From a virus: 25,409 bases of DNA. The notes beneath the pieces are model-generated. The model was not told the DNA's origin. It searched no databases and saw only the letters and a program-made list of their open reading frames with translations. The DNA is taken from IMG/VR virus record IMGVR_UViG_3300009413_000074, positions 1 to 25,409 of that record, one strand, 5' to 3'. The position numbers and the translations under genes were made by a program. Positions 7,139-25,409 of the stretch are shown one piece after another; within the stretch, counting starts at the first letter, position 1; each line of letters begins with the position of its first letter.

Positions 7139-8038
7139 TTACATCTTAATAGTTTTAACTTGGTCTTCACCTATCTCTTCCTTTTCATCAAATAGTTCTT
7201 GTGCTATTGCATCCATTGGAACACGTTTCTCAAAGATGTGACTATATCTTTCTTTATTCATTGCTACTCTAGCTTCATACGACATACTATCTGGACGTGT
7301 AGGAGGAGTTAAAGTGTGTAAAATAGAACTTGTATCTATATGTACAGTATGCTCCCATATGGCAAATCTTTCATAGAATATACCTTCTGTATCCGAATCA
7401 ACAAACTTAACTCCTGGCAATTGCAATAAAGAAGTTTTAATCAATAATGCAGACATAGAAGCCCACTTCTGATTATATACTCCAGAGTTTTTTTCTCTAA
7501 AAGGCCCACCTAACATTTCTCCACTTTTACTATCCATAACCATTGGAGTTATCATAGGTACGTTAAATTCTATAAGATCCACTAAAAGATTAGGTTCAGG
7601 CATAGCATCATTATCAATAAAGAATGTAAATTGTAGACCACTTTTAATAGCGTTCATTGCTCCATGTTCACGAGCAGATGCTACCGATGGATTTGGGAAA
7701 GCACCAAACCAAACTGGAAACTCTTCAAATGATACTTTGTATCCTCTCTTTTGAGTATAGATACACATATCTTTAACTAATTGTTCACAGTCGATTCCTT
7801 TTTTTTCATCTCTCTTCCAACGATTTCCAACTGCTACTATATAAACAGAACCAGGACTTGCATGAGGCCAGCTATAATGATCTTGTTCAAAGTATCTGTC
7901 TTTCTCTAAATCATTACTAAATGTAATTCTCTTTAAGCAATCTCCATTATGGTTTTGTATAATGTCAACACCGTCCTCTCCTTCCTTACTAGCCATTAAC
8001 ATTTTATGATAAACAGTATCTTTATTATAATCCGTCAT
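7139..8038 (-). CDS. GT-A-type glycosyltransferase, paralog A (299 aa)
   Basis: This is likely a nucleotide-sugar glycosyltransferase. It has a strand-helix N-terminal part (SPGSVYIVAVGNRW, about 61-74), a hydrophobic strand ending in the DxD-type motif IDNDAMP (D142 and D144) that in GT-A enzymes binds metal and sugar nucleotide, then GGPFREKNSGVYNQKW and a C-terminal TPPTRPDS ... KERY segment. The same blocks in the same order occur in the next upstream gene and at 17121-18002, so the three are paralogs. It overlaps the end of paralog B by 14 bases, and GAGG precedes its ATG. The target is unknown: virion protein glycosylation fits the setting best; DNA or host-surface modification are alternatives. 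Confidence 0.75.
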   Translation of the reverse strand: MTDYNKDTVYHKMLMASKEGEDGVDIIQNHNGDCLKRITFSNDLEKDRYFEQDHYSWPHASPGSVYIVAVGNRWKRDEKKGIDCEQLVKDMCIYTQKRGYKVSFEEFPVWFGAFPNPSVASAREHGAMNAIKSGLQFTFFIDNDAMPEPNLLVDLIEFNVPMITPMVMDSKSGEMLGGPFREKNSGVYNQKWASMSALLIKTSLLQLPGVKFVDSDTEGIFYERFAIWEHTVHIDTSSILHTLTPPTRPDSMSYEARVAMNKERYSHIFEKRVPMDAIAQELFDEKEEIGEDQVKTIKM

Positions 8039-8915
8039 TCACATCCTCTTTAGCTACTTTAGTAACATCAAATTCTGAGACTTGTTGCTGTTGTAGAATT
8101 TTATTATCTTCTGATTCACCTAAGACTGCTATATATGTATCATTAGATAAAGCTTCGTCATATTCTTCTTGAGATACCCAATTTCGTGTAGGCTCTCTAT
8201 CATATCTTTCCTTTAATCTTTCCATTCTAGTATCCCATTTTACAGAGTCTGGTCTACCAGGAGGACTAGCTAAAGTTAATACTTGAGAAGTATCAATCTG
8301 TTGAGTTAAGCCATATAGAGTTGTTCTATGAGCAAAACCATCTTCAGCTTCATCACTGCTAAAATGAATCTCTGGATTATTAAATATAGCAGTCTTGCAC
8401 AAAAGAAAACACTGAGGTATCCACCTTTGTTCAAATAGACCTGAGTTTATTTCTCTAGTTGGACCTCCTAATTGTAAGTTAATAGCAGGGTCTATAACAT
8501 ATGGAGTAATAATTGAAACATTATGTGCCAGTAATTTAGCAAGCATATCTTCTTGTGGAAGCACATCAGTATCTAACATACATACAAATTGCACTCCACC
8601 TATTCTTGCTTCGTTTTTAATAGCATTACGAGTTGCCGCATGAGAAGCCTGCGGAAAAGTATTATGATATACTTGGAACTCTACATATTGAGCTACATAA
8701 CCAGCTTCTCTAGTATAATCCTTCATTGCTATTATCTTTTCTTTAGATTCACCAGTAAAGTCAGTACCAACTGTAGCTATTAAGACAGAGCCAGGACTAA
8801 AGTGTGATGTACTATTCAAGTCATGAGAAAAGTACCTTTCAGCTACAATCTGATTTTCAAAAGTTAAGGACTTGTCAGCAGGGTTTTTCTGCCTTTCTAT
8901 TTTTGGTTCATCCAT
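8025..8915 (-). CDS. GT-A-type glycosyltransferase, paralog B (296 aa)
   Basis: This gene shares the block order of the two other glycosyltransferases: HFSPGSVLIATVGTDF (about 38-53), MLDTDVLP with D115 and D117 as the DxD-type metal/nucleotide-sugar site, GGPTREINSGLFEQRWIPQC, and SPPGRPDS ... RLKERYDRE near the C terminus. The frame is open to 9008, but ATG 8915 is chosen because AAGGAAGAG lies just upstream and the length then matches its paralogs; the extra upstream codons cover a transcription terminator. A glutamine run (QQQQ) lies near the C terminus. It is the first gene after that terminator and is coupled to paralog A. A role in decorating the virion is inferred from context only. 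Confidence 0.75.
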   Translation of the reverse strand: MDEPKIERQKNPADKSLTFENQIVAERYFSHDLNSTSHFSPGSVLIATVGTDFTGESKEKIIAMKDYTREAGYVAQYVEFQVYHNTFPQASHAATRNAIKNEARIGGVQFVCMLDTDVLPQEDMLAKLLAHNVSIITPYVIDPAINLQLGGPTREINSGLFEQRWIPQCFLLCKTAIFNNPEIHFSSDEAEDGFAHRTTLYGLTQQIDTSQVLTLASPPGRPDSVKWDTRMERLKERYDREPTRNWVSQEEYDEALSNDTYIAVLGESEDNKILQQQQVSEFDVTKVAKEDVNDGL

Positions 8916-8960
8916 ATCTCTTCCTTTAAAATTTAGTGTGCCAACTGTCACTAGTAGCTT

Positions 8961-9006
8961 TAAAATTAAGGGGAAGCAGTAACCTCGCCAAAGAAACTGC
9001 CTCCCC
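8961..9006 (-). terminator. Rho-independent terminator after the tail tube gene
   Basis: On the minus strand GGGGAGGCAGT (9006-8996) pairs with ACTGCTTCCCC (8980-8970) to give an 11-bp stem with one G-U pair and a 15-base loop, followed by TTAATTTTA. It lies 22 bases after the tail tube stop and would limit read-through into the glycosyltransferase genes. A smaller TCCCC/GGGGA hairpin sits just before it. Confidence 0.75.
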
Positions 9007-9027
9007 AAAAAATTAGGGGATTGTCTT

Positions 9028-11836: not shown

Positions 11837-12118
11837 TTATACCGGAACCTCTATTACTTCAGACTCATTAATCTCTGGTTTTAAATTAGCAATTCTAAAT
11901 AGTTGAGTTCCTTCAGTATTTAAGATGTACATACCGACATCAGGAATAACCACTACTGGAGCATGAACTCTACTATCTTTGAAAAGTAATTGGACACCAA
12001 TCATTAATAATGGATTGTCAATCATTATTTCTCTAATGGTGTGACCTTGTGATTCTAGCAATTCTCTTGCCTTATCACAAGCATCACACCCTTCGAGTTT
12101 GTAGAGGAAAACCTCCAC
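11837..12118 (-). CDS. Glutaredoxin/thioredoxin-like protein (93 aa)
   Basis: This is a small thiol-disulfide oxidoreductase-like protein. The beta strand MEVFLYKLEG leads into a redox motif C11-D-A-C14, the following helix is KARELLESQG, and a likely cis-Pro lies at P54 in VHAPVVVIPDVG, all in glutaredoxin order and at glutaredoxin length. The strand after cis-Pro (MYILNTEGTQLFRI) departs from the usual GG motif. The start is GTG 12118, one base after the upstream stop, with no clear ribosome binding site, so it is likely coupled to the beta-helix gene. Phages commonly carry glutaredoxins for ribonucleotide reductase, but a location among head genes suggests a possible role in folding or cross-linking of virion proteins (inference). 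Confidence 0.75.
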   Translation of the reverse strand: MEVFLYKLEGCDACDKARELLESQGHTIREIMIDNPLLMIGVQLLFKDSRVHAPVVVIPDVGMYILNTEGTQLFRIANLKPEINESEVIEVPV

Positions 12119-16599: not shown

Positions 16600-17121
16600 T
16601 TAGGTGTCAATTTTCTCTCTTACCAATAATTTGATTAGACATTTCATGTCAGCAGCTTCATTTGTAAATGCTGTATTGGTTACAAGTGTACCAAATAAAC
16701 TGTCATCACCACTCGCTAAGCCAAAAATTAATGGTGTCTCAAATATCACTTGTGCATAAGATATCCCGCCATTATTATCCATTGCAGGAAACAAGATATT
16801 ACCTTGATATTCCTCTTTATCTGCTGCATTAGGATTATCATTGGCTACGTTATCATCTTGATTACCTGTAGGTGTAATATTAAATAGATGAAGAGTTAAT
16901 GCAGGAATAAGGTCTGTAGTCTCTATAGATATATCTGCTTTTACAATTTCACCAATACCACCATTTATGCTTAATATTTCATCAAAGTTCCATGCTGTAC
17001 CTGTAGTAACATGCTCTGACAAAACATCTTCATCATCATAGTTTCCAGCCGCTGCCAGAGCTTTTTCCTCTCTAATTTCTACAATATTAGAACCAGCAAA
17101 AACTTTCTTAGCTGAAGCCAT
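16600..17121 (-). CDS. Head-region structural protein (173 aa)
   Basis: A beta-rich protein with no catalytic motif, starting MASAKKVFAGSNIVEIREEK and containing a LIPALTLHLFNITPTGNQDD stretch (about residues 70-90) followed by an acidic Asn-rich loop. It sits immediately upstream of the capsid transcription unit and has a GGGAG site before ATG 17121, which overlaps the glycosyltransferase stop. A decoration, head-fibre or neck role is possible; I do not recognise a named family. Confidence 0.75.
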   Translation of the reverse strand: MASAKKVFAGSNIVEIREEKALAAAGNYDDEDVLSEHVTTGTAWNFDEILSINGGIGEIVKADISIETTDLIPALTLHLFNITPTGNQDDNVANDNPNAADKEEYQGNILFPAMDNNGGISYAQVIFETPLIFGLASGDDSLFGTLVTNTAFTNEAADMKCLIKLLVREKIDT

Positions 17122-18002
17122 TATTTCACTCCCATAGTTAGTAATTTAGGAATACTTGTACTAGTCTCTAAATGTTTAAAATATTCTAATTGATCTTCTT
17201 TACCAAACAAAAATGGGCAATATATTCCTTCTTTAACCCAAGGACTATCTTTATCTATAGCCTTTCTATTTGGCACCTCTTTTTTATCATATCTTTCTTT
17301 TAGCATATTGGTACGCGTATCAAAGTCATATTGAGCCATTCTACCTGGAGGAGTTACTGTTTGAACCTCTAAATCAGTATCTATCCAGAATTGATGTCCG
17401 TAATGTCTTAAAAGTTGTCCAAATTGACCCTCTTGGTATAAACCTTTAAATCTAATATCAGGACAGTTAAATACTTTAGAATCAAAAAGCATAAAAGATG
17501 CGCCAACCCAACGCATAGGTTGCAAACCTTGGCCTCTCTCAAAACGAGGAATCCCTAAAGCATGATCTTCACCTTGGTCCCAAAGATATGGAGATACACA
17601 AGGAAATGGATGCTCTAATAGCTTAATTAATGTGTCCTTTGCTGGTAATATATCATTATCTATTAAGCATATCTTGTGGAATCCTGCATCTCTCCCCATT
17701 ACTATAGCACTGTCACGCATAATTTGAGTCATTGCCATAGGAAAGTTAATATGATCTTCTTCCACCTCTTGTAACCAAACATTGTAACCTTTAAAGTTAG
17801 ACCACATGACCATATCTACTACCCTGTTCCAACTTTGTGGTTGCCATGAAGTTCCAATTGCAGCTACAAAAACTGAATCAGGACGAATATGCCAATATTC
17901 AGAGAACTTTTCTGAGTTACGTTTCTTTTCAACAGGATTAGCATGAGGTTGTATAGTCCAATTTTCTACTTCAGTGATAGGGACATCATAGAATTGCTGC
18001 AT
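17121..18002 (-). CDS. GT-A-type glycosyltransferase, paralog C (293 aa)
   Basis: This is the third member of the glycosyltransferase family, placed among head genes. Blocks in order: YWHIRPDSVFVAAIGTSW (about 36-53), CLIDNDILP with D115 and D117 as the DxD-type metal/nucleotide-sugar motif at the same positions as paralog B, FERGQGLQPMRWVGASFMLF, and TPPGRMAQYDFDTRTNMLKE followed by RYDKK near the C terminus. The region between the DxD and the C-terminal block is more diverged than between A and B, so it split off earlier. A GAGGGAG site precedes ATG 18002, which directly abuts the upstream gene. No signal peptide or membrane segment is present, so it acts in the cytoplasm. The substrate is unknown. 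Confidence 0.75.
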   Translation of the reverse strand: MQQFYDVPITEVENWTIQPHANPVEKKRNSEKFSEYWHIRPDSVFVAAIGTSWQPQSWNRVVDMVMWSNFKGYNVWLQEVEEDHINFPMAMTQIMRDSAIVMGRDAGFHKICLIDNDILPAKDTLIKLLEHPFPCVSPYLWDQGEDHALGIPRFERGQGLQPMRWVGASFMLFDSKVFNCPDIRFKGLYQEGQFGQLLRHYGHQFWIDTDLEVQTVTPPGRMAQYDFDTRTNMLKERYDKKEVPNRKAIDKDSPWVKEGIYCPFLFGKEDQLEYFKHLETSTSIPKLLTMGVK

Positions 18003-18992: not shown

Positions 18993-20498
18993 TTACTCCT
19001 TTGTAGTAACTAACTCGTAAGGCATTAAGTGCTCAGATGGTTCTCCTTCACTAGTAACCTTGTGTCCATTTGTAGATTGACGCAAGCTCTCTACATCTTG
19101 TTCTGATGGAGTATTTCTAGTTTCTACATCTTGTAAAAGTTCAATTCCAGAAGATTGGTCAATATGGTCTAACAAAGTATGCAGCACCGACTTTAATCTA
19201 TCTTTATCCTTTTGTTCTAACACCAACATGTTTTCTGCACGAGAGGCTTGATTAATGAAACCACCAAGATTTCTAAGTGATTGTGTTAATCTCTGTAAGT
19301 CCCGCATGGAAATCTTTGGCATGAATATTTCAATAGTTCTGTCTTTGCCTTCTATAGTCTTGTTTCCGTGTATCTCTGCTTGGTCTAAGACAAAATCGAA
19401 AATCTCTAATAGAATGTCACGCCACACATACTGTCTATCTGCAAGTGTCTTAAATACCCACTCATTAACATCGCCACCTGCTTGCCTTCCACCACCTGGG
19501 TCACCAAATGCTTGCGAGGATAATCCACTTCCACCCCAAATCATGTGCATGAAAGTAGTGGCATCTTGAGTAGCATCATCAGCTTGTAAGTCAGGAGACA
19601 TAGGTTTGCGTTGCTCTTTTTCGTTATGAACGTAAAACCTTCCAGAACGCTGTTTTTGCTCTTGAATAATTAAGTCAGCCATCTTTTTATCTAGTTCAGC
19701 TTTACCAGCACCTTGTACTTCAATATCCCAAAGGAATTGAGACATATAACCTTGTCTTGTAGCACGATTAAAGACAAACTGGTCATATATATCAATCCAG
19801 TCAGCAATTGGATAAAGGTCAGATAAGCCACGTAAAGCATCATGAGACTTATTAATTCCAAAAAAGAACATATCTCCCCAATACTTCATGAAATTGGGGT
19901 TAGAAGTTTCTCCATCTGGTAGAAATATCTCTGTATTTACTTTAATAGCCTGAAACACTTGTTTAGGTACAGACTTTCCACTAACATCTTTCCCTTCTTT
20001 AGTAATGATTTGTTCAACTTCAAATACATTTCTAATATTAGGATGAAGTTCGTGAATAATACTTGGATGAGAAGCTCCTAATTGAACTGCACCATTAACA
20101 TCGTTAACATAGGCAGGATAAAGTGCTTCTCCATATAAACTAAGTGATATAACCCTTTCACGTAAATATTTTCTCCAGTTATTCCTTCTATCCTTCCAAA
20201 ATCTCTGTAATACCCTAGCTACTTCAGGGTCTATAGCCTTTACGATTATACCTTCCCCTACAACGAAGGCCTTCATTACCTCAATTATTCTGTGAGCTAT
20301 AGCATTTCTGCGATATAGATATACAGCTATAGCTTGCATTCTATCCATTTGGAATGTAGGAAGATCTCTACCTCCTACTGTTAATGGAGTCCAGCCTATA
20401 TTCTCTACATCATCAATGTTACCTTGACCAGATGTAGAATAAGGAAGGTTCTCTCTTAAGTTAAATACCTTAGCTACAGATTCTCTAAAAAAATTCAT
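18993..20498 (-). CDS. Portal protein (501 aa)
   Basis: The portal forms the dodecameric DNA-entry ring of the head. The length is typical, and the position directly after the terminase nuclease gene is the standard order. Recognisable portal features are the N-terminal helical region with MDRMQAIAVYLYRRNAIAHR (about 50-69), a wing region with QLGASHPSIIHELHPN, the stem-helix region starting SHDALRGLSDLYPIADWIDI (about 217-236), and the long C-terminal crown helices after GGGRQAGGDVNEW. The start overlaps the upstream stop (TAATG) with no strong ribosome binding site of its own. No fused protease or MuF domain is present. Confidence 0.9.
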   Translation of the reverse strand: MNFFRESVAKVFNLRENLPYSTSGQGNIDDVENIGWTPLTVGGRDLPTFQMDRMQAIAVYLYRRNAIAHRIIEVMKAFVVGEGIIVKAIDPEVARVLQRFWKDRRNNWRKYLRERVISLSLYGEALYPAYVNDVNGAVQLGASHPSIIHELHPNIRNVFEVEQIITKEGKDVSGKSVPKQVFQAIKVNTEIFLPDGETSNPNFMKYWGDMFFFGINKSHDALRGLSDLYPIADWIDIYDQFVFNRATRQGYMSQFLWDIEVQGAGKAELDKKMADLIIQEQKQRSGRFYVHNEKEQRKPMSPDLQADDATQDATTFMHMIWGGSGLSSQAFGDPGGGRQAGGDVNEWVFKTLADRQYVWRDILLEIFDFVLDQAEIHGNKTIEGKDRTIEIFMPKISMRDLQRLTQSLRNLGGFINQASRAENMLVLEQKDKDRLKSVLHTLLDHIDQSSGIELLQDVETRNTPSEQDVESLRQSTNGHKVTSEGEPSEHLMPYELVTTKE

Positions 20499-21415
20499 TA
20501 TAAGATCATCCTTCTATGCATTCCCATACCAACACCATCTCTACGAATAATACCTACACCATTATCACTTTCATTGAAATAGTTATCTAGAGCTTCTTGT
20601 TCCTCTTTGGTTAATCCTCTATCTTCATAATTACGTGCAACAGACTCTACAAATTGTTGAATTTCTTCATTAGAGCCAGGTTCAGAGACACTTGCAGCAG
20701 ATACAGTAGAAATAATAGAAGTTAACACTCCAGCAACTCCATCTAGCGTATCATCATGTGGAGCATCTGGAAAAGAGACCCATTCTTCAACAAATATGTT
20801 AAATTCTTCAATTGGCTGCCATTTTCCCAAATCATCCTGATATCCAGGCAATAAAGCACGTCCAGCGTTAAAATGTGCTCCAGCAGACTCAAATTTGATC
20901 TTTTTATCAGAACGATGCCAATTTTTGTCTGTTTCTTGGATATTGAACATTAATTGTTCTTTTACATGGTTATAGAAGTATAATTGAGGCCCACCAACCT
21001 CAATAACTATAACTTCTGGTGCCCAAACAGCATATACATCCTTAATTAACTGAACTTGTAATTCTAGAGGTGCTTTTGTACGAATTAAGTTCAAAAGGTA
21101 TATCTTATTCTCAAAAAGACCTGCTGTAGCCATACAAAAGAAGTCAGCACTATTCTTTAGAGAAGCAGCAGGGTCAATAAAGGATACTATTTTCTCGAAA
21201 GTTAATGGGCGATTATTCCAATCATACCAACTAAGCCATGAACGCTTCAAGTAGTTACCAGTGGTATCCATAGGTGAGGACTGATATTGTGAGGAAAAGG
21301 ATACAGGCCCCAAGTCAGTTTGCCAATCTTTAAGAATCTTGACAGGAAATTGCTCAGGCCAATAGCTCTCCCCGTCATCTTGAATTGCTTTATATACTAT
21401 TACTTTGCCTGGCAT
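20498..21415 (-). CDS. Large terminase, nuclease half (305 aa)
   Basis: This is the C-terminal nuclease part of a packaging terminase, encoded as its own gene. It opens with the sequence that usually follows the ATPase domain in one-piece terminases (YKAIQDDGESYWPEQFP, then FSSQYQSSP). The RNase H-like active site is visible as D81 in VSFIDPAAS, E139 in VIVIEVGG and D221/D222 in APHDDTLDG. No Walker motifs are present. The start ATG lies 12 bases after the stop of a Cys-rich gene, has no Shine-Dalgarno site, and TAG blocks any upstream extension. The partner ATPase gene is 1,037 bases upstream. A separately translated subunit that associates with the ATPase is the simplest reading. Confidence 0.9.
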   Translation of the reverse strand: MPGKVIVYKAIQDDGESYWPEQFPVKILKDWQTDLGPVSFSSQYQSSPMDTTGNYLKRSWLSWYDWNNRPLTFEKIVSFIDPAASLKNSADFFCMATAGLFENKIYLLNLIRTKAPLELQVQLIKDVYAVWAPEVIVIEVGGPQLYFYNHVKEQLMFNIQETDKNWHRSDKKIKFESAGAHFNAGRALLPGYQDDLGKWQPIEEFNIFVEEWVSFPDAPHDDTLDGVAGVLTSIISTVSAASVSEPGSNEEIQQFVESVARNYEDRGLTKEEQEALDNYFNESDNGVGIIRRDGVGMGMHRRMIL

Positions 21416-21427
21416 TATAATATAAAG

Positions 21428-21724
21428 CTAAAATATAAACTCATGTTGCTCTGTAGTCTTTTTATCTGCATCTCTCTTTCTTCGTTTCTCTCTTCTTTTT
21501 AATTGTGTCTCTGACCATAACCTTTTAAGAGATTTGTCCCAACAACTTATACATAGATTATCTCCAAGCTCTCCATAAATCCTACACAAACGTCCACTTG
21601 GAGACTTACCTTGACATACCCCAATAGTGTATTCAGGGATATGTGCCTCAACCATCGAGTCAGGCCTTGTAGTATTAGTCATCACTACATGACTTTTGCG
21701 CTGTCTTTTAGACTCTTCTACCAT
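21428..21724 (-). CDS. Cys-rich basic small protein between terminase halves (98 aa)
   Basis: Four cysteines, C37-x9-C47-x10-C58-x2-C61, lie in a compact core (GVCQGKSPSGRLCR, NLCISCWDKS), followed by a strongly basic stretch at about 76-92 (KRREKRRKRDADKK), which suggests a zinc-binding nucleic-acid-binding protein. The ATG overlaps the end of the preceding gene in another frame, without a ribosome binding site. The family is unknown. Its place directly before the terminase nuclease half hints at a packaging role. Confidence 0.7.
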   Translation of the reverse strand: MVEESKRQRKSHVVMTNTTRPDSMVEAHIPEYTIGVCQGKSPSGRLCRIYGELGDNLCISCWDKSLKRLWSETQLKRREKRRKRDADKKTTEQHEFIF

Positions 21725-21987
21725 TTACGGATTTTAGGCCTCTTGTCGATATTTTCAACCTTGTCATCTCTTAACCAATAACGCATATCATCTGGAATTA
21801 TACCTAAAACCCAAGCTTTTCCACAGTTACCACACATATATGCTTTATTTTCACTAATTTCAGACTTTAATAGCTCATTTTGGCCTTGGCAACCATTACA
21901 TTGCCATAAAAGGCTTTCACCATCGGGTATTGGAGTAATTTTAATCTTTGGAAGCTGAGGTTCCTCAAAAGGATTAATTACAGTCAT
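21718..21987 (-). CDS. Zinc-ribbon small protein between terminase halves (89 aa)
   Basis: A clear zinc ribbon, C30-x2-C33 in WQCNGCQGQ and C52-x2-C55 in YMCGNCGKAW, is flanked by a Pro-rich N terminus and a charged C terminus. The ATG at 21987 is chosen because it overlaps the upstream stop as ATGA, the usual coupled arrangement; an ATG six codons earlier has no ribosome binding site. Such ribbons bind nucleic acid or act as protein-protein modules. No more specific family is recognised. Confidence 0.75.
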   Translation of the reverse strand: MTVINPFEEPQLPKIKITPIPDGESLLWQCNGCQGQNELLKSEISENKAYMCGNCGKAWVLGIIPDDMRYWLRDDKVENIDKRPKIRKW

Positions 21988-22439
21988 TTCTTGACTACCA
22001 TCCATGTAGATTCAGCTATAGGAGTCTGATGATAAGGATATTTCTCTAATTTAGGGAATGTTGAAGAGAAAACAGGCCAATCCTTAACTAAGAGATCGTC
22101 ATTGCAACCAAAAGTCTTTACTAATATAGAACCTGACACTTCTCTAGCAGCTAAAATAATAGGCTCATAGAGACTAGGACTTATATAGTCTGCTATCCAT
22201 GTTCTATGAAGGCCAGTTACTGAAGATACACATAAAAGTCTAACATAACCTATTAAGCTAGTATGATAGTCTTTTCCTTTAAGTAAGAAATATATTACAT
22301 CATCTGATTTACTAAAGACATCCCATGTTTGTTCTGCTTTAGGAAAGTTAGCTCTACCTTCTGAAATACAACGATTATCAACAACAGAAGCTAATTTAAT
22401 CTGATCCCAAGTTGTGGCTTTCTCTACTGAATAATTCAT
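21984..22439 (-). CDS. Unidentified protein, possibly GNAT-like (151 aa)
   Basis: The ATG at 22439 is preferred, with AGGTG five bases upstream; a GTG six bases earlier is also possible. The gene starts just after the terminase ATPase stop. The order of helices and strands, with a central IGYVRLLCVSS strand, a WIADYISPSLYEPIILAARE strand-helix and a C-terminal strand, is loosely like an acetyltransferase (GNAT) fold, but I do not see the pyrophosphate-binding Q/RxxGxG/A loop, so catalysis is doubtful. It is the largest of the three genes between the terminase halves. Function is unknown. Confidence 0.7.
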   Translation of the reverse strand: MNYSVEKATTWDQIKLASVVDNRCISEGRANFPKAEQTWDVFSKSDDVIYFLLKGKDYHTSLIGYVRLLCVSSVTGLHRTWIADYISPSLYEPIILAAREVSGSILVKTFGCNDDLLVKDWPVFSSTFPKLEKYPYHQTPIAESTWMVVKK

Positions 22440-22452
22440 TACCACACCTACA

Positions 22453-23313
22453 TTATAGTTTTTCTAACTCTTGCTCTAATTCTCTATAACGTTTAACTTG
22501 GTCCAAAACTTCTGCTACCATATTCCCAGTTAACTCTGCGCCAGTATCCAGCATCTTCGCAATAACTGATATATAGATATCTTTCATTGACCATCTAGAG
22601 CCTACAACAACAATTTGAGTTTTGGCATGACGAGAACCCTTTAATTCTTCGTTGAACCAGTAATTGATGTCGAGAATTTGATTATCAGTTTTGACATCAC
22701 TTCTGTCAATAATATCGTCAAGAATGATAATATCAGCACGACGCCCAACAACAGCACCGCCAACACCAACAGAAAAGATAGAACAATCCTTTGCATCAAC
22801 ACGATAACCCAGTTTATTAAATTCTGGTCTACCTTTAACAATCTTCTCTGTTTCATTCCATTTCACTGTTTCAGAGTTAATAGATGTAGAGATAACTGGA
22901 ATCATATTACCAAATAAGAGTTGATACTTTTCCAGTTTCATTATGTTTTCTATACTTCTACTAAACGAAGATGCTAACGTAGCAGTATGAGAACCAATGA
23001 TAACTCTAATACCTCTATCTTGTCCTAGTCTGTAAGAAGGATAACGTGTTGAAGCAATAGATGACTTACCAGAGTTTCGAGGAACAATACCTACTACATC
23101 CTCAAATGTATCTAAAGCTTCGCATAACTCTATATGATGAAGAGCATTCTTCTCTTCAAATACATATTCATTGAAAGTTTCTAATTTATTCCTAGAACCT
23201 ATTACCTCTCTGTCAACAGTTACCTTTTCTGTAACAACTTTAAAAAGGTCTGTTAGTTGATTTTGGTCAACATTAAGGATATCAGGATTTTGAAGTAAAT
23301 TAGGATTTAGCAT
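22453..23313 (-). CDS. Large terminase, ATPase half (286 aa)
   Basis: This is the motor part of the packaging terminase as a separate gene. Walker A is PRNSGKSS at residues 78-85, Walker B with catalytic carboxylates is ADIIILDD at 193-200, and the coupling motif is VVVGSRW at 235-241. After this the sequence runs only about 45 residues (MKDIYISV then a charged helix ending ELEQELEKL) and stops, whereas normal large terminases continue into the nuclease domain. There is no nuclease active site. The ATG overlaps the terminase small subunit stop. The charged C-terminal helix could mediate docking to the nuclease half (inference). Confidence 0.92.
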   Translation of the reverse strand: MLNPNLLQNPDILNVDQNQLTDLFKVVTEKVTVDREVIGSRNKLETFNEYVFEEKNALHHIELCEALDTFEDVVGIVPRNSGKSSIASTRYPSYRLGQDRGIRVIIGSHTATLASSFSRSIENIMKLEKYQLLFGNMIPVISTSINSETVKWNETEKIVKGRPEFNKLGYRVDAKDCSIFSVGVGGAVVGRRADIIILDDIIDRSDVKTDNQILDINYWFNEELKGSRHAKTQIVVVGSRWSMKDIYISVIAKMLDTGAELTGNMVAEVLDQVKRYRELEQELEKL

Positions 23314-23906
23314 TATTGAGTAGCCACAGGGAGAGAAATACGATTTAAGCCATGATTAATAGCTTCTCTAGTATCTGCATCAATTACGTTAGTATCTATT
23401 ACCTCTCCAATAGTCTGCATTATTGCAGCAACAACCTTAACATCAATAACATACTTTCTACCAACTTCAATTTCATGCTTGGTTTGTATTAACTTAGCAA
23501 TTGTCTTAGTTAGAGTAGTGATATTACGAGTTAATTCTCCAGCATCAAAGCTAATACCCATTTCTTGAAGTACTGAAGTATCTATATTAGCAAAAAGTTC
23601 TATGTGTTTATCAAATAACTCTAGGTAAGCTCTATTTAGAGCAATCTCTCTATCTAGTGAGTATATATTCCTATCTAAAAGATAAAACTCCATTCTGTCT
23701 TGTAGAGCTGGTATTTGATACATTCTTACAGGAGAACTATTAGACTTATCTTCGTGCCACTTACAGCGACCTTCGTTAGGATGGTCTGTACCTTGACCAC
23801 TTGTACTGGTACAAATATCCCCGCCTACCTTTGTGGCACCACAAATTCCATATCTTTTATCTTTTTTAACAATTTCCTTTTTATCTTTATCGTAGTTATC
23901 TATCAT
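23313..23906 (-). CDS. Terminase small subunit candidate (197 aa)
   Basis: Residues 20-52 carry a Cys/His block, C22-GATKVGGDI-C32 ... GTDHPNEGRCKWH with H42, C48 and H51, a pattern seen at the N terminus of some terminase small subunits (CxxxTKxGxxC ... GTxHxGxGxCKxH), probably a zinc-stabilised DNA-binding element. The rest is helical, with a long central coiled-coil-like region (about 68-160) as expected for the oligomerisation core. It lies immediately upstream of the ATPase gene, the normal order, and its ATG overlaps the 45-residue zinc-ribbon gene's stop as ATGA. In the family this protein recognises the packaging site. The assignment rests on context plus this motif. Confidence 0.75.
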   Translation of the reverse strand: MIDNYDKDKKEIVKKDKRYGICGATKVGGDICTSTSGQGTDHPNEGRCKWHEDKSNSSPVRMYQIPALQDRMEFYLLDRNIYSLDREIALNRAYLELFDKHIELFANIDTSVLQEMGISFDAGELTRNITTLTKTIAKLIQTKHEIEVGRKYVIDVKVVAAIMQTIGEVIDTNVIDADTREAINHGLNRISLPVATQ

Positions 23907-24040
23907 AATATTGTTTTCTGCTTCATCTCAAATCCACAACCAACACATGTGATACTTTTACTAGTAGAGCCATTTCCAGAAAAGACTTTATTCACATAAA
24001 GACATTGTGGACACATTACTTTTAATATAGTTAATCCCAT
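23903..24040 (-). CDS. Mini zinc-ribbon protein, 45 aa
   Basis: A very short gene that is easily missed. It starts MGLTILKVMCPQCLYVNKVF and has C10-x2-C13 and C32-x2-C35 (SITCVGCGFEMK), a complete zinc ribbon with an 18-residue loop. Its ATG lies inside the end of the TnpB-like gene and its TGA overlaps the terminase small subunit ATG as ATGA, so all three are translationally chained. The size and layout resemble Com-like phage zinc-finger proteins, but resemblance of layout is all I can claim. It probably binds nucleic acid or a packaging protein. Confidence 0.75.
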   Translation of the reverse strand: MGLTILKVMCPQCLYVNKVFSGNGSTSKSITCVGCGFEMKQKTIL

Positions 24041-24492
24041 GCTAGCATCCTTAACTTATCCTCGGTAGCATGTTTAAGATTTCTAGCTGCATTAACATCA
24101 GCATTAACTCTAAACCCACAATAAGTACAAACAAACAACCAAGGTTCTCTTCTAGATTCTCTATCCACAAACTTGCAATTACTACATATTATACTAGATT
24201 TAAACTTGTCTACATATATTATATCTATATGACCGAACGTTCTTGCTTTACAGTAGTTAGTTATTAGGTTACTTGCTAAATCTAAGCCTTTAATCTTCTT
24301 TTTATCGTGTCTATTATCTTCTAATGCAATAACTAAGGTGTTATATTGAATTATCTGCCTAAAGAGCTCATATGCATCTTCAGAAGTCTTAACAGTCATT
24401 CGGAATCCAGTAGATAGAGCTATATTGCCAACTTTACCTATATCGATTCCTACAACTTCATGTATAGCATGTAACATTTCGCAAAACGGCAT
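24031..24492 (-). CDS. Minimal TnpB-like RuvC nuclease with zinc ribbon (153 aa)
   Basis: Only the catalytic core of a TnpB/OrfB-type protein is present. RuvC-I is VVGIDIGKVGNIALS with D17, RuvC-II is LVIALEDN with E58, the zinc ribbon is C93-x2-C96 ... C112-x2-C115 (CSNCKF, CTYCGF), and RuvC-III is NADVNAARN with D122, the hallmark TnpB ending. The N-terminal WED/REC region that holds the guide RNA is absent: a TGA lies two codons before the ATG and there is no upstream extension. All three catalytic carboxylates are kept, so it may still cut DNA, for instance as a branch resolvase before packaging. No transposon ends or tnpA are seen. An alternative start is ATG 24477. Confidence 0.8.
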   Translation of the reverse strand: MPFCEMLHAIHEVVGIDIGKVGNIALSTGFRMTVKTSEDAYELFRQIIQYNTLVIALEDNRHDKKKIKGLDLASNLITNYCKARTFGHIDIIYVDKFKSSIICSNCKFVDRESRREPWLFVCTYCGFRVNADVNAARNLKHATEDKLRMLAWD

Positions 24493-24503
24493 TTTTCAAG
24501 CCA

Positions 24504-24532
24504 ATATTAACACAGATAACATTAAATGTCAA
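24504..24532 (-). promoter_or_regulatory. Leftward promoter for the packaging operon
   Basis: On the minus strand TTGACA (24532-24527) is followed by a 17-base spacer and TAATAT (24509-24504), with TG one base before the -10 (extended -10). Transcription would begin near 24497, leaving almost no leader before ATG 24492 of the TnpB-like gene. Confidence 0.6.
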
Positions 24533-24588
24533 TAACACAAGAAAAATCAGATTTTGACCTATTATTAATGTACGCGCACGCGCGTCTT

Positions 24589-24598
24589 CTCTTTATAG
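24589..24598 (+). repeat. Direct repeat CTCTTTATAG, copy 1
   Basis: Exact 10-bp match to 24699-24708, 110 bases apart, the two copies flanking the G-rich tract. They could be terminase small subunit or regulator binding sites. Confidence 0.5.
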
Positions 24599-24663
24599 CT
24601 ATTTATAGTGATATCAAAATACTTTCTATTGACAAAATAATGAGCACAGGCGTACCATAATCT

Positions 24664-24679
24664 GGGGTGGGGGCCGGGG
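24664..24679 (+). other. G-rich tract, candidate cos/pac core
   Basis: GGGGTGGGGGCCGGGG is a sharp compositional outlier in an AT-rich sequence. It lies just upstream of the packaging genes, where cos or pac sites are usual, and between two direct repeats. Only three G runs of four or more exist, so it is not a classical G-quadruplex. A packaging-site role is inferred. Confidence 0.3.
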
Positions 24680-24698
24680 TGACGATAGTGGAGGATTA

Positions 24699-24708
24699 CT
24701 CTTTATAG
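24699..24708 (+). repeat. Direct repeat CTCTTTATAG, copy 2
   Basis: Second exact copy of the 10-bp repeat found at 24589-24598, on the other side of the G-rich tract. Confidence 0.5.
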
Positions 24709-25108
24709 TATAGCGCCTTTTTTAAATATCTGATCTTGTAGTTTTATTACTTTTGGTTTACCAAAGGTTCGTTTTCGCGTTAGCGTGGCAGTCCTCGCGC
24801 AACTTATAAATGCTAATTCCACAAAGATTTATTCTACACACTTTCTCTTTCCATAGTTGTTGCTTTCCACAGAAATTCTGAATGCTTAATATTAATGGGG
24901 AGTCTAGGGCAAAAAGGAAAATTTGTGAGCGATTCTGTGTCTGGTGAAGATTATAGAAGTGAGCTCTTAGAAAATAAAATTTGTTCGAAAAAATGTTTCT
25001 GGTGTCCCTTACCTGTAATCGTTATTTCTTGATATGGGTTCCCATCCTTGAATGAATTCTATGTAGGTATCATTTACTCGTATACTATGTGCTAGTTAAC
25101 ATCATTGC

Positions 25109-25123
25109 TTGACTTCTAGTCAA
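25109..25123. promoter_or_regulatory. Operator-like dyad TTGACT-TCT-AGTCAA
   Basis: A perfect 6-bp inverted repeat with a 3-base centre, suited to a dimeric repressor. A similar 7-bp dyad with a 3-base centre follows 42 bases later (25151-25167). Confidence 0.4.
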
Positions 25124-25150
25124 TTTTGTGTTAGGGGTATTGACACGTTA

Positions 25151-25167
25151 TTGATACCATGTATCAA
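25151..25167. promoter_or_regulatory. Operator-like dyad TTGATAC-CAT-GTATCAA
   Basis: A perfect 7-bp inverted repeat with a 3-base centre, just downstream of a TTGACA hexamer (25140-25145). No good -10 follows that hexamer, so it is called as an operator candidate only. Confidence 0.45.
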
Positions 25168-25184
25168 ATACGAACTTCGTCACA
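25168..25184. repeat. Dyad repeat copy 1 (ATACGAACTTCGTCACA)
   Basis: Matches the copy at 25369-25385 at 15 of 17 positions. The core ACGAACTTCGT (25170-25180) is palindromic. A third, shorter relative, TCGAATATCGT, is at 25200-25210. The shared pattern WCGAANNTCGT suggests a set of repressor sites. Confidence 0.5.
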
Positions 25185-25199
25185 AAATCAGGATATGCG

Positions 25200-25210
25200 T
25201 CGAATATCGT
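25200..25210. repeat. Dyad repeat copy 2 (TCGAATATCGT)
   Basis: Fits the WCGAANNTCGT pattern of the copies at 25170-25180 and 25371-25381; it lies 30 bases from the first, close to three helical turns. Confidence 0.4.
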
Positions 25211-25254
25211 TATAACATGGGCTCTAAACTACGAATAATTCATTTTCAACCCCG

Positions 25255-25282
25255 TTGACGTTACGACTTCTAACGCTATAAT
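25255..25282 (+). promoter_or_regulatory. Rightward sigma70 promoter
   Basis: TTGACG (25255-25260), a 16-base spacer and a perfect TATAAT (25277-25282). Transcription would start near 25289 and run out of the window to the right, opposite to all structural genes. Dyad repeats lie on both sides and a SOS-like palindrome lies downstream. Confidence 0.7.
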
Positions 25283-25313
25283 GTAGGCAGGCACATACCC
25301 GACCCGATAGGAT

Positions 25314-25327
25314 AGAACATATGTTCG
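25314..25327. promoter_or_regulatory. LexA/SOS-box-like palindrome
   Basis: AGAACATATGTTCG matches the Gram-positive SOS box CGAACRNRYGTTYG at all but the first base and contains the perfect 12-bp palindrome GAACATATGTTC. It lies about 25-40 bases downstream of the predicted rightward start and covers the ATG of a possible gene. A phage repressor with similar specificity is an alternative reader. Confidence 0.5.
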
Positions 25328-25409
25328 ACTTCCCATACGGCGCAATGCGCTGTCACACATCTAATCAGATACGAAAATCGTCACATTTAATCGCGCACAT
25401 TACGAATTA
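25321..25409 (+). CDS. Possible rightward gene, 5' end only
   Basis: ATG 25321, with AGGA eight bases upstream (25309-25312), opens a frame beginning MFDFPYGAMRCHTSNQIRKS that stays open to the window edge (29 codons). It lies just downstream of the rightward promoter and under the SOS-like palindrome. Twenty-nine codons are too few to identify a product or exclude chance. Confidence 0.35.
   Translation, partial: MFDFPYGAMRCHTSNQIRKSSHLIAHITN
25369..25385. repeat. Dyad repeat copy 3 (ATACGAAAATCGTCACA)
   Basis: Matches 25168-25184 at 15 of 17 positions, core ACGAAAATCGT (25371-25381). It lies about 90 bases downstream of the rightward -10, inside the possible rightward gene. Confidence 0.5.

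What the first reader, a model, noticed from the sequence alone, without database searches (positions are those of the whole stretch)
24031..24492. TnpB-like nuclease core without its guide-RNA-binding half, at the head of the packaging operon
RuvC-I D17, RuvC-II E58, four zinc-ribbon cysteines and RuvC-III D122 are all kept, yet only 41 residues separate D17 from E58 and no N-terminal WED/REC domain exists; a TGA blocks extension. There is no tnpA and no transposon end. Retained catalysis plus chaining to the terminase genes suggests a domesticated protein, perhaps a branched-DNA resolvase for packaging or an RNA-free nuclease.
Basis: partly seen in the sequence, partly recalled or inferred. 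Interest (0 to 1): 0.7.

Follow-up and report, generated by a model that had tools for sequence, protein, structure and literature searches.

The report
Guide-less TnpB nuclease in phage
A phage seems to have cut down a TnpB-type (Cas12-related) nuclease to its DNA-cutting core, dropping the half that binds guide RNA, and made it the first gene of its DNA-packaging operon, the reverse of the known domesticated TnpBs that keep the RNA and lose the cutting.

Summary
The 153-aa minus-strand ORF has a complete predicted RuvC (RNase H) fold with D17, E58 and D132 and a CxxC...CxxC zinc ribbon of TnpB/Cas12f type. It lacks the whole N-terminal half and a helical hairpin of about 42 residues between RuvC-I and RuvC-II. 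All nine key residues align with positions invariant in 47 phage TnpBs. The nearest solved structures are the RuvC plus zinc-ribbon halves of Cas12f and TnpB (Z about 13), then bacterial RuvC and poxvirus resolvase (Z about 10). A related phage (large terminase 80% identical) carries a homolog at the same end of the packaging operon, 65% identical over the 46 residues that can be compared, with dN/dS about 0.17. A more distant sister phage (52%) lacks the gene. No transposase, TnpB N-terminus or known RNA family is nearby. Pattern scans found no other compact member. Best reading: a domesticated, RNA-independent nuclease acting on branched or nicked DNA when packaging begins. The molecular identity is well supported; the substrate is inferred.

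The parts
24031..24492 (-). mini-RuvC: 153-aa RuvC core (D17, E58, D132) plus TnpB/Cas12f-type zinc ribbon (C103, C106, C122, C125); no WED/REC, no RuvC-I/II helical hairpin
24504..24532 (-). sigma70-like promoter match with extended -10 (TTGACA-17-TAATAT, TG before); the -10 ends 11 nt before the ATG, so the first gene would have almost no leader (no Shine-Dalgarno seen)
   Evidence: (consensus match only; about 7 such sites expected by chance in the region)
24493..25409 (.). about 0.9 kb without a credible gene upstream of the ORF; no TnpB N-terminus, no Rfam match
23903..24040 (-). 45-aa four-cysteine zinc-ribbon ORF, start overlaps the end of mini-RuvC
23313..23906 (-). 197-aa gene at the small-terminase position (conserved in relatives; no family match)
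22453..23313 (-). large terminase, ATPase part
   Evidence: PHROG 38, 9.8e-40
20498..21415 (-). large terminase, nuclease part (separate ORF)
   Evidence: PHROG 38, 5.9e-38
18993..20498 (-). portal protein
   Evidence: PHROG 10963, 1.6e-29

Best explanation
It is a domesticated TnpB/Cas12f-lineage nuclease reduced to the catalytic RuvC domain and its target-nucleic-acid-binding zinc ribbon. Without WED/REC and the helical hairpin it cannot hold an omega/guide RNA the TnpB way, so it most likely cuts DNA by shape, like RuvC-type resolvases. Placed first in the packaging operon, it is made together with terminase and most likely trims branched or nicked recombination intermediates (Holliday junctions, Y-forks, flaps) so that concatemers can be packaged. 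Shown by sequence: the architecture, the retained catalytic residues, the genomic position, and purifying selection on the C-terminal third. Predicted: the complete fold. Inferred: RNA independence, substrate, and the link to packaging.
For: All catalytic and zinc residues align with invariant TnpB positions. Complete RNase H fold plus zinc ribbon, pLDDT 81, pTM 0.78. VIA-align Z 13.6 OsCas12f, 12.9 ISFba1 TnpB, 10.4 T. thermophilus RuvC bound to a Holliday junction, 10.2 fowlpox resolvase. Syntenic homolog in L008 with dN/dS 0.226/1.30. First gene of an overlapping chain into the terminase and portal genes. The sister phage G004 encodes RuvB with both P-loop and winged-helix domains, a Sak4-like annealing protein and a PD-(D/E)XK exonuclease, so recombination intermediates are expected in this phage group, and no canonical RuvC was found there. 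[quoted passage not shown]
Against: No biochemical data. The good model depends on TnpB rows in the alignment; the single-sequence model fails (pLDDT 39). The homolog in L008 is cut at the residue matching 102, so its D17/E58 and compactness are unseen, and there 2.4 kb of other genes lie between it and the terminase genes. The sister phage G004 lives without the gene. The early region of the window's own phage is not in the record, so its RuvB is unknown. RuvC and poxvirus resolvases work as dimers; dimerisation was not tested.
Confidence: 0.42

Rival explanations
1. Packaging-site accessory nuclease: it helps terminase cut or nick at cos/pac, as the HNH protein gp74 does in HK97, rather than resolving branches.
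For: A small nuclease at the terminase end of the late operon. HK97 gp74 stimulates cos cleavage by the large terminase (PMC9410871). The related phage L008 has another small nuclease, an SNase homolog, directly before the small-terminase-position gene.
Against: No cos/pac site identified. The sister phage packages without it.
Confidence: 0.2
2. Host- or rival-directed nuclease (host DNA breakdown, superinfection exclusion, counter-defence) that merely rides on the late operon.
For: Accessory distribution: present in the window phage and L008, absent in G004. Basic protein (pI 8.5).
Against: Head position in the packaging operon and selection comparable with neighbouring genes. PADLOC hits are mostly the zinc ribbon shared with Cas12.
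Confidence: 0.18
3. Decaying remnant of a TnpB transposon gene with no function.
For: TnpB fragments occur in phages (phrog_17087 is a C-terminal TnpB fragment family).
Against: No tnpA, no N-terminal remnant, no Rfam-listed RNA. An internal deletion leaves the fold intact. dN/dS 0.17 against the relative. The ORF overlaps the next gene.
Confidence: 0.1
4. Still RNA-guided, using a guide or a REC-like partner supplied in trans.
For: RuvC and TNB parts contact guide/target nucleic acid in Cas12f (established knowledge).
Against: No partner gene found in the record and no listed RNA family.
Confidence: 0.05

Closest known systems
TnpB (IS200/IS605, IS607) RNA-guided nuclease
   Same: RuvC triad, TNB zinc ribbon, RuvC-III NAD.NAA.N motif; 22-30% identity over the aligned part to phage TnpBs; Z 12.9 to ISFba1 TnpB
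   Different: No WED/REC, no RuvC-I/II helical hairpin, no omega RNA recognised, no transposon; 153 against about 350-420 aa
Cas12f RuvC-TNB half
   Same: Best structural matches (Z 13.6 OsCas12f, 13.5 AsCas12f)
   Different: Stand-alone domain, no CRISPR, no guide-binding half
TldR (TnpB-like nuclease-dead repressors)
   Same: TnpB exapted in association with non-transposon genes, also in phages
   Different: Mirror image: TldR keeps guide/DNA binding and loses RuvC catalysis (PMC13418256); this keeps the catalytic residues and loses the guide half
RuvC / poxvirus A22-type resolvases
   Same: Compact stand-alone RuvC fold (Z about 10), similar size
   Different: Zinc ribbon present, sequence clearly TnpB-like, three catalytic acidic residues recognised rather than the four of RuvC
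HK97 gp74-type HNH packaging endonucleases
   Same: Small nuclease associated with the terminase genes
   Different: Unrelated fold (HNH)

Membership tests
TnpB RNA-guided nuclease | RuvC-I/II/III D-E-D triad | tested here: met
   D17, E58, D132 aligned to invariant columns
TnpB RNA-guided nuclease | C-terminal TNB zinc ribbon (PF07282) | tested here: met
   1.8e-12, above gathering cut-off
TnpB RNA-guided nuclease | N-terminal WED/REC half (PF01385 and upstream) | tested here: not met
   no match in any frame of the record; NF040570 matches only two short stretches, far below its 100-bit cut-off
TnpB RNA-guided nuclease | associated tnpA or transposon | tested here: not met
   no Y1_Tnp or serine recombinase in the record; many TnpBs also lack tnpA, so this is a weak criterion
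TnpB RNA-guided nuclease | omega RNA / guide RNA | tested here: inconclusive
   no Rfam family, but omega RNAs are poorly covered by Rfam; the 3' end overlaps another ORF
RuvC-type Holliday junction resolvase (PF02075) | compact stand-alone RuvC fold | tested here: met
   predicted complete fold, Z 10.4 to Tth RuvC
RuvC-type Holliday junction resolvase (PF02075) | sequence match to the RuvC family | tested here: not met
   no PF02075 match in the record at E <= 1
RuvC-type Holliday junction resolvase (PF02075) | dimer that cuts four-way junctions | not testable with these tools
   needs biochemistry
TldR | catalytic RuvC residues lost, guide-binding half kept | tested here: not met
   the opposite on both counts

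The most novel reading that the evidence does not exclude
A TnpB has been converted back into a guide-free, structure-specific RuvC resolvase that clears branched DNA for phage packaging: a reversal of the usual path from RuvC-like enzyme to RNA-guided nuclease.
Probability: 0.35. Interest if true: 0.8.

Novelty: new variant of a known kind. Interest (0 to 1): 0.58.

Why it matters
TnpB exaptation is known in two directions, both RNA-guided: active CRISPR effectors and dead repressors. A conserved, catalytically intact RuvC-zinc core without the guide half would be a third direction. It would also be a very small natural test of what the RuvC/TNB module does on its own, which bears on how RNA guidance was gained and whether it can be lost.

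Tried and rejected
Read as a truncated full TnpB with its N-terminus in another frame: no PF01385 in any frame. Membership in phrog_17087 (a 141-aa family matched at 1.2e-4): rejected, because in full TnpBs that profile starts only after RuvC-I. Close relatives in annotated phages and plasmids: the hits are TnpB/transposase genes. Terminase search in genome contigs for a host: none. RuvB search for the early region of the window's phage: only the sister. Similarity between the non-coding stretches upstream of the operon in the window and in L096: none. Single-sequence structure prediction was uninformative. Literature searches found no described guide-less, nuclease-intact TnpB in phages; the library is partial.

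Full report
Observation. The ORF at 24031-24492 on the minus strand encodes 153 aa. D17 (RuvC-I), E58 (RuvC-II), C103/C106/C122/C125 and the RuvC-III aspartate are present; the last is D132, not D122 as first written. An in-frame TGA two codons before the ATG closes the frame. Pfam gives Cas12f1-like_TNB at 1.8e-12 for residues 89-139. The N-terminal half has no family hit of its own, but against a profile of 47 phage TnpB RuvC segments residues 1-90 score 9.5 bits, with none of 2000 shuffles above 6.1, and in the full protein the match lies in the correct order relative to the zinc ribbon.

Anatomy. In an alignment with phage TnpBs, D17, E58, D132, the four cysteines, N134 and N138 all fall on columns that are invariant in 47 of 47 TnpBs; a second, 28-row alignment agrees apart from near-invariant RuvC-I/II columns. 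What is missing is precise: the whole WED/REC half, about 42 residues of helical hairpin between RuvC-I strand 3 and the helix before RuvC-II, and the loop after RuvC-II. AlphaFold2 with that alignment gives pLDDT 81 and pTM 0.78 with strands 13-18, 23-26, 31-33, helix 37-48, strand 54-58, helix 64-83, strand 90-94, zinc ribbon, helix 131-152: a complete RNase H fold. The model leans on the TnpB rows; with the sequence alone it fails (pLDDT 39). Structural matches rank Cas12f (Z 13.6) and TnpB (12.9) first, T. thermophilus RuvC (10.4) and fowlpox resolvase (10.2) after.

Neighbourhood. The ORF is followed by overlapping genes: a 45-aa zinc-ribbon ORF, a 197-aa gene at the small-terminase position and the large-terminase ATPase ORF, then small genes, the large-terminase nuclease ORF and portal. 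Upstream lie about 0.9 kb without a credible gene, no TnpB N-terminus, no Rfam family, and a sigma70-like extended -10 promoter match that ends 11 nt before the ATG (consensus match only). No Y1 or serine-recombinase tnpA is in the record.

Relatives. The same phage occurs in a second contig (L002). L008, a phage with an 80% identical large-terminase ATPase part, starts inside a homolog: 50 residues, 65% identical over 46, all four cysteines and the RuvC-III aspartate kept; dN/dS over 46 codons is 0.226/1.30, in the range of its neighbours. In L008 about 2.4 kb of other genes, including an SNase homolog, lie between it and the terminase genes. The sister G004 (58 kb, large terminase 52%) has no TNB domain anywhere and its operon begins with the gene at the small-terminase position; it encodes RuvB, a Sak4-like protein and an exonuclease but no recognisable RuvC. 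Pattern scans for other compact members found none, within the limits stated under Tried and rejected.

Interpretation. Retained catalytic residues, loss of the guide-binding half, selection and packaging-operon position together favour a domesticated RNA-independent nuclease. [quoted passage not shown] a gp74-like helper of terminase (PMC9410871) is the main rival. The contrast with TldR, which keeps guide and DNA binding and loses the nuclease (PMC13418256), is the most notable point. Function is not shown.

Noticed in passing
20498-23313: The large terminase is split into an ATPase ORF and a nuclease ORF with three small genes between (two in relatives); the split is conserved in L008, L009 and L096, down to 52% identity.
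   Followed up: partly
L137:6356-7210: Sister phage G004 encodes a RuvB with both P-loop and C-terminal winged-helix domains (Pfam 1.1e-18 and 2.4e-17), apparently unusual for a phage.
   Followed up: partly
7139-8038, 8025-9008, 17121-18002: Three related proteins of about 300 aa without a Pfam match, glycosyltransferase-like by eye.
   Followed up: no
11837-12118: Glutaredoxin-like protein (Pfam 4.2e-5) between structural genes.
   Followed up: no
L096:2313-2341: A 12-of-12 sigma70 promoter match with extended -10 about 270 nt before the packaging operon of the sister phage.
   Followed up: no
24493-25409: About 0.9 kb non-coding end of the record with G-rich and palindromic stretches; possibly the packaging or origin region.
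   Followed up: partly
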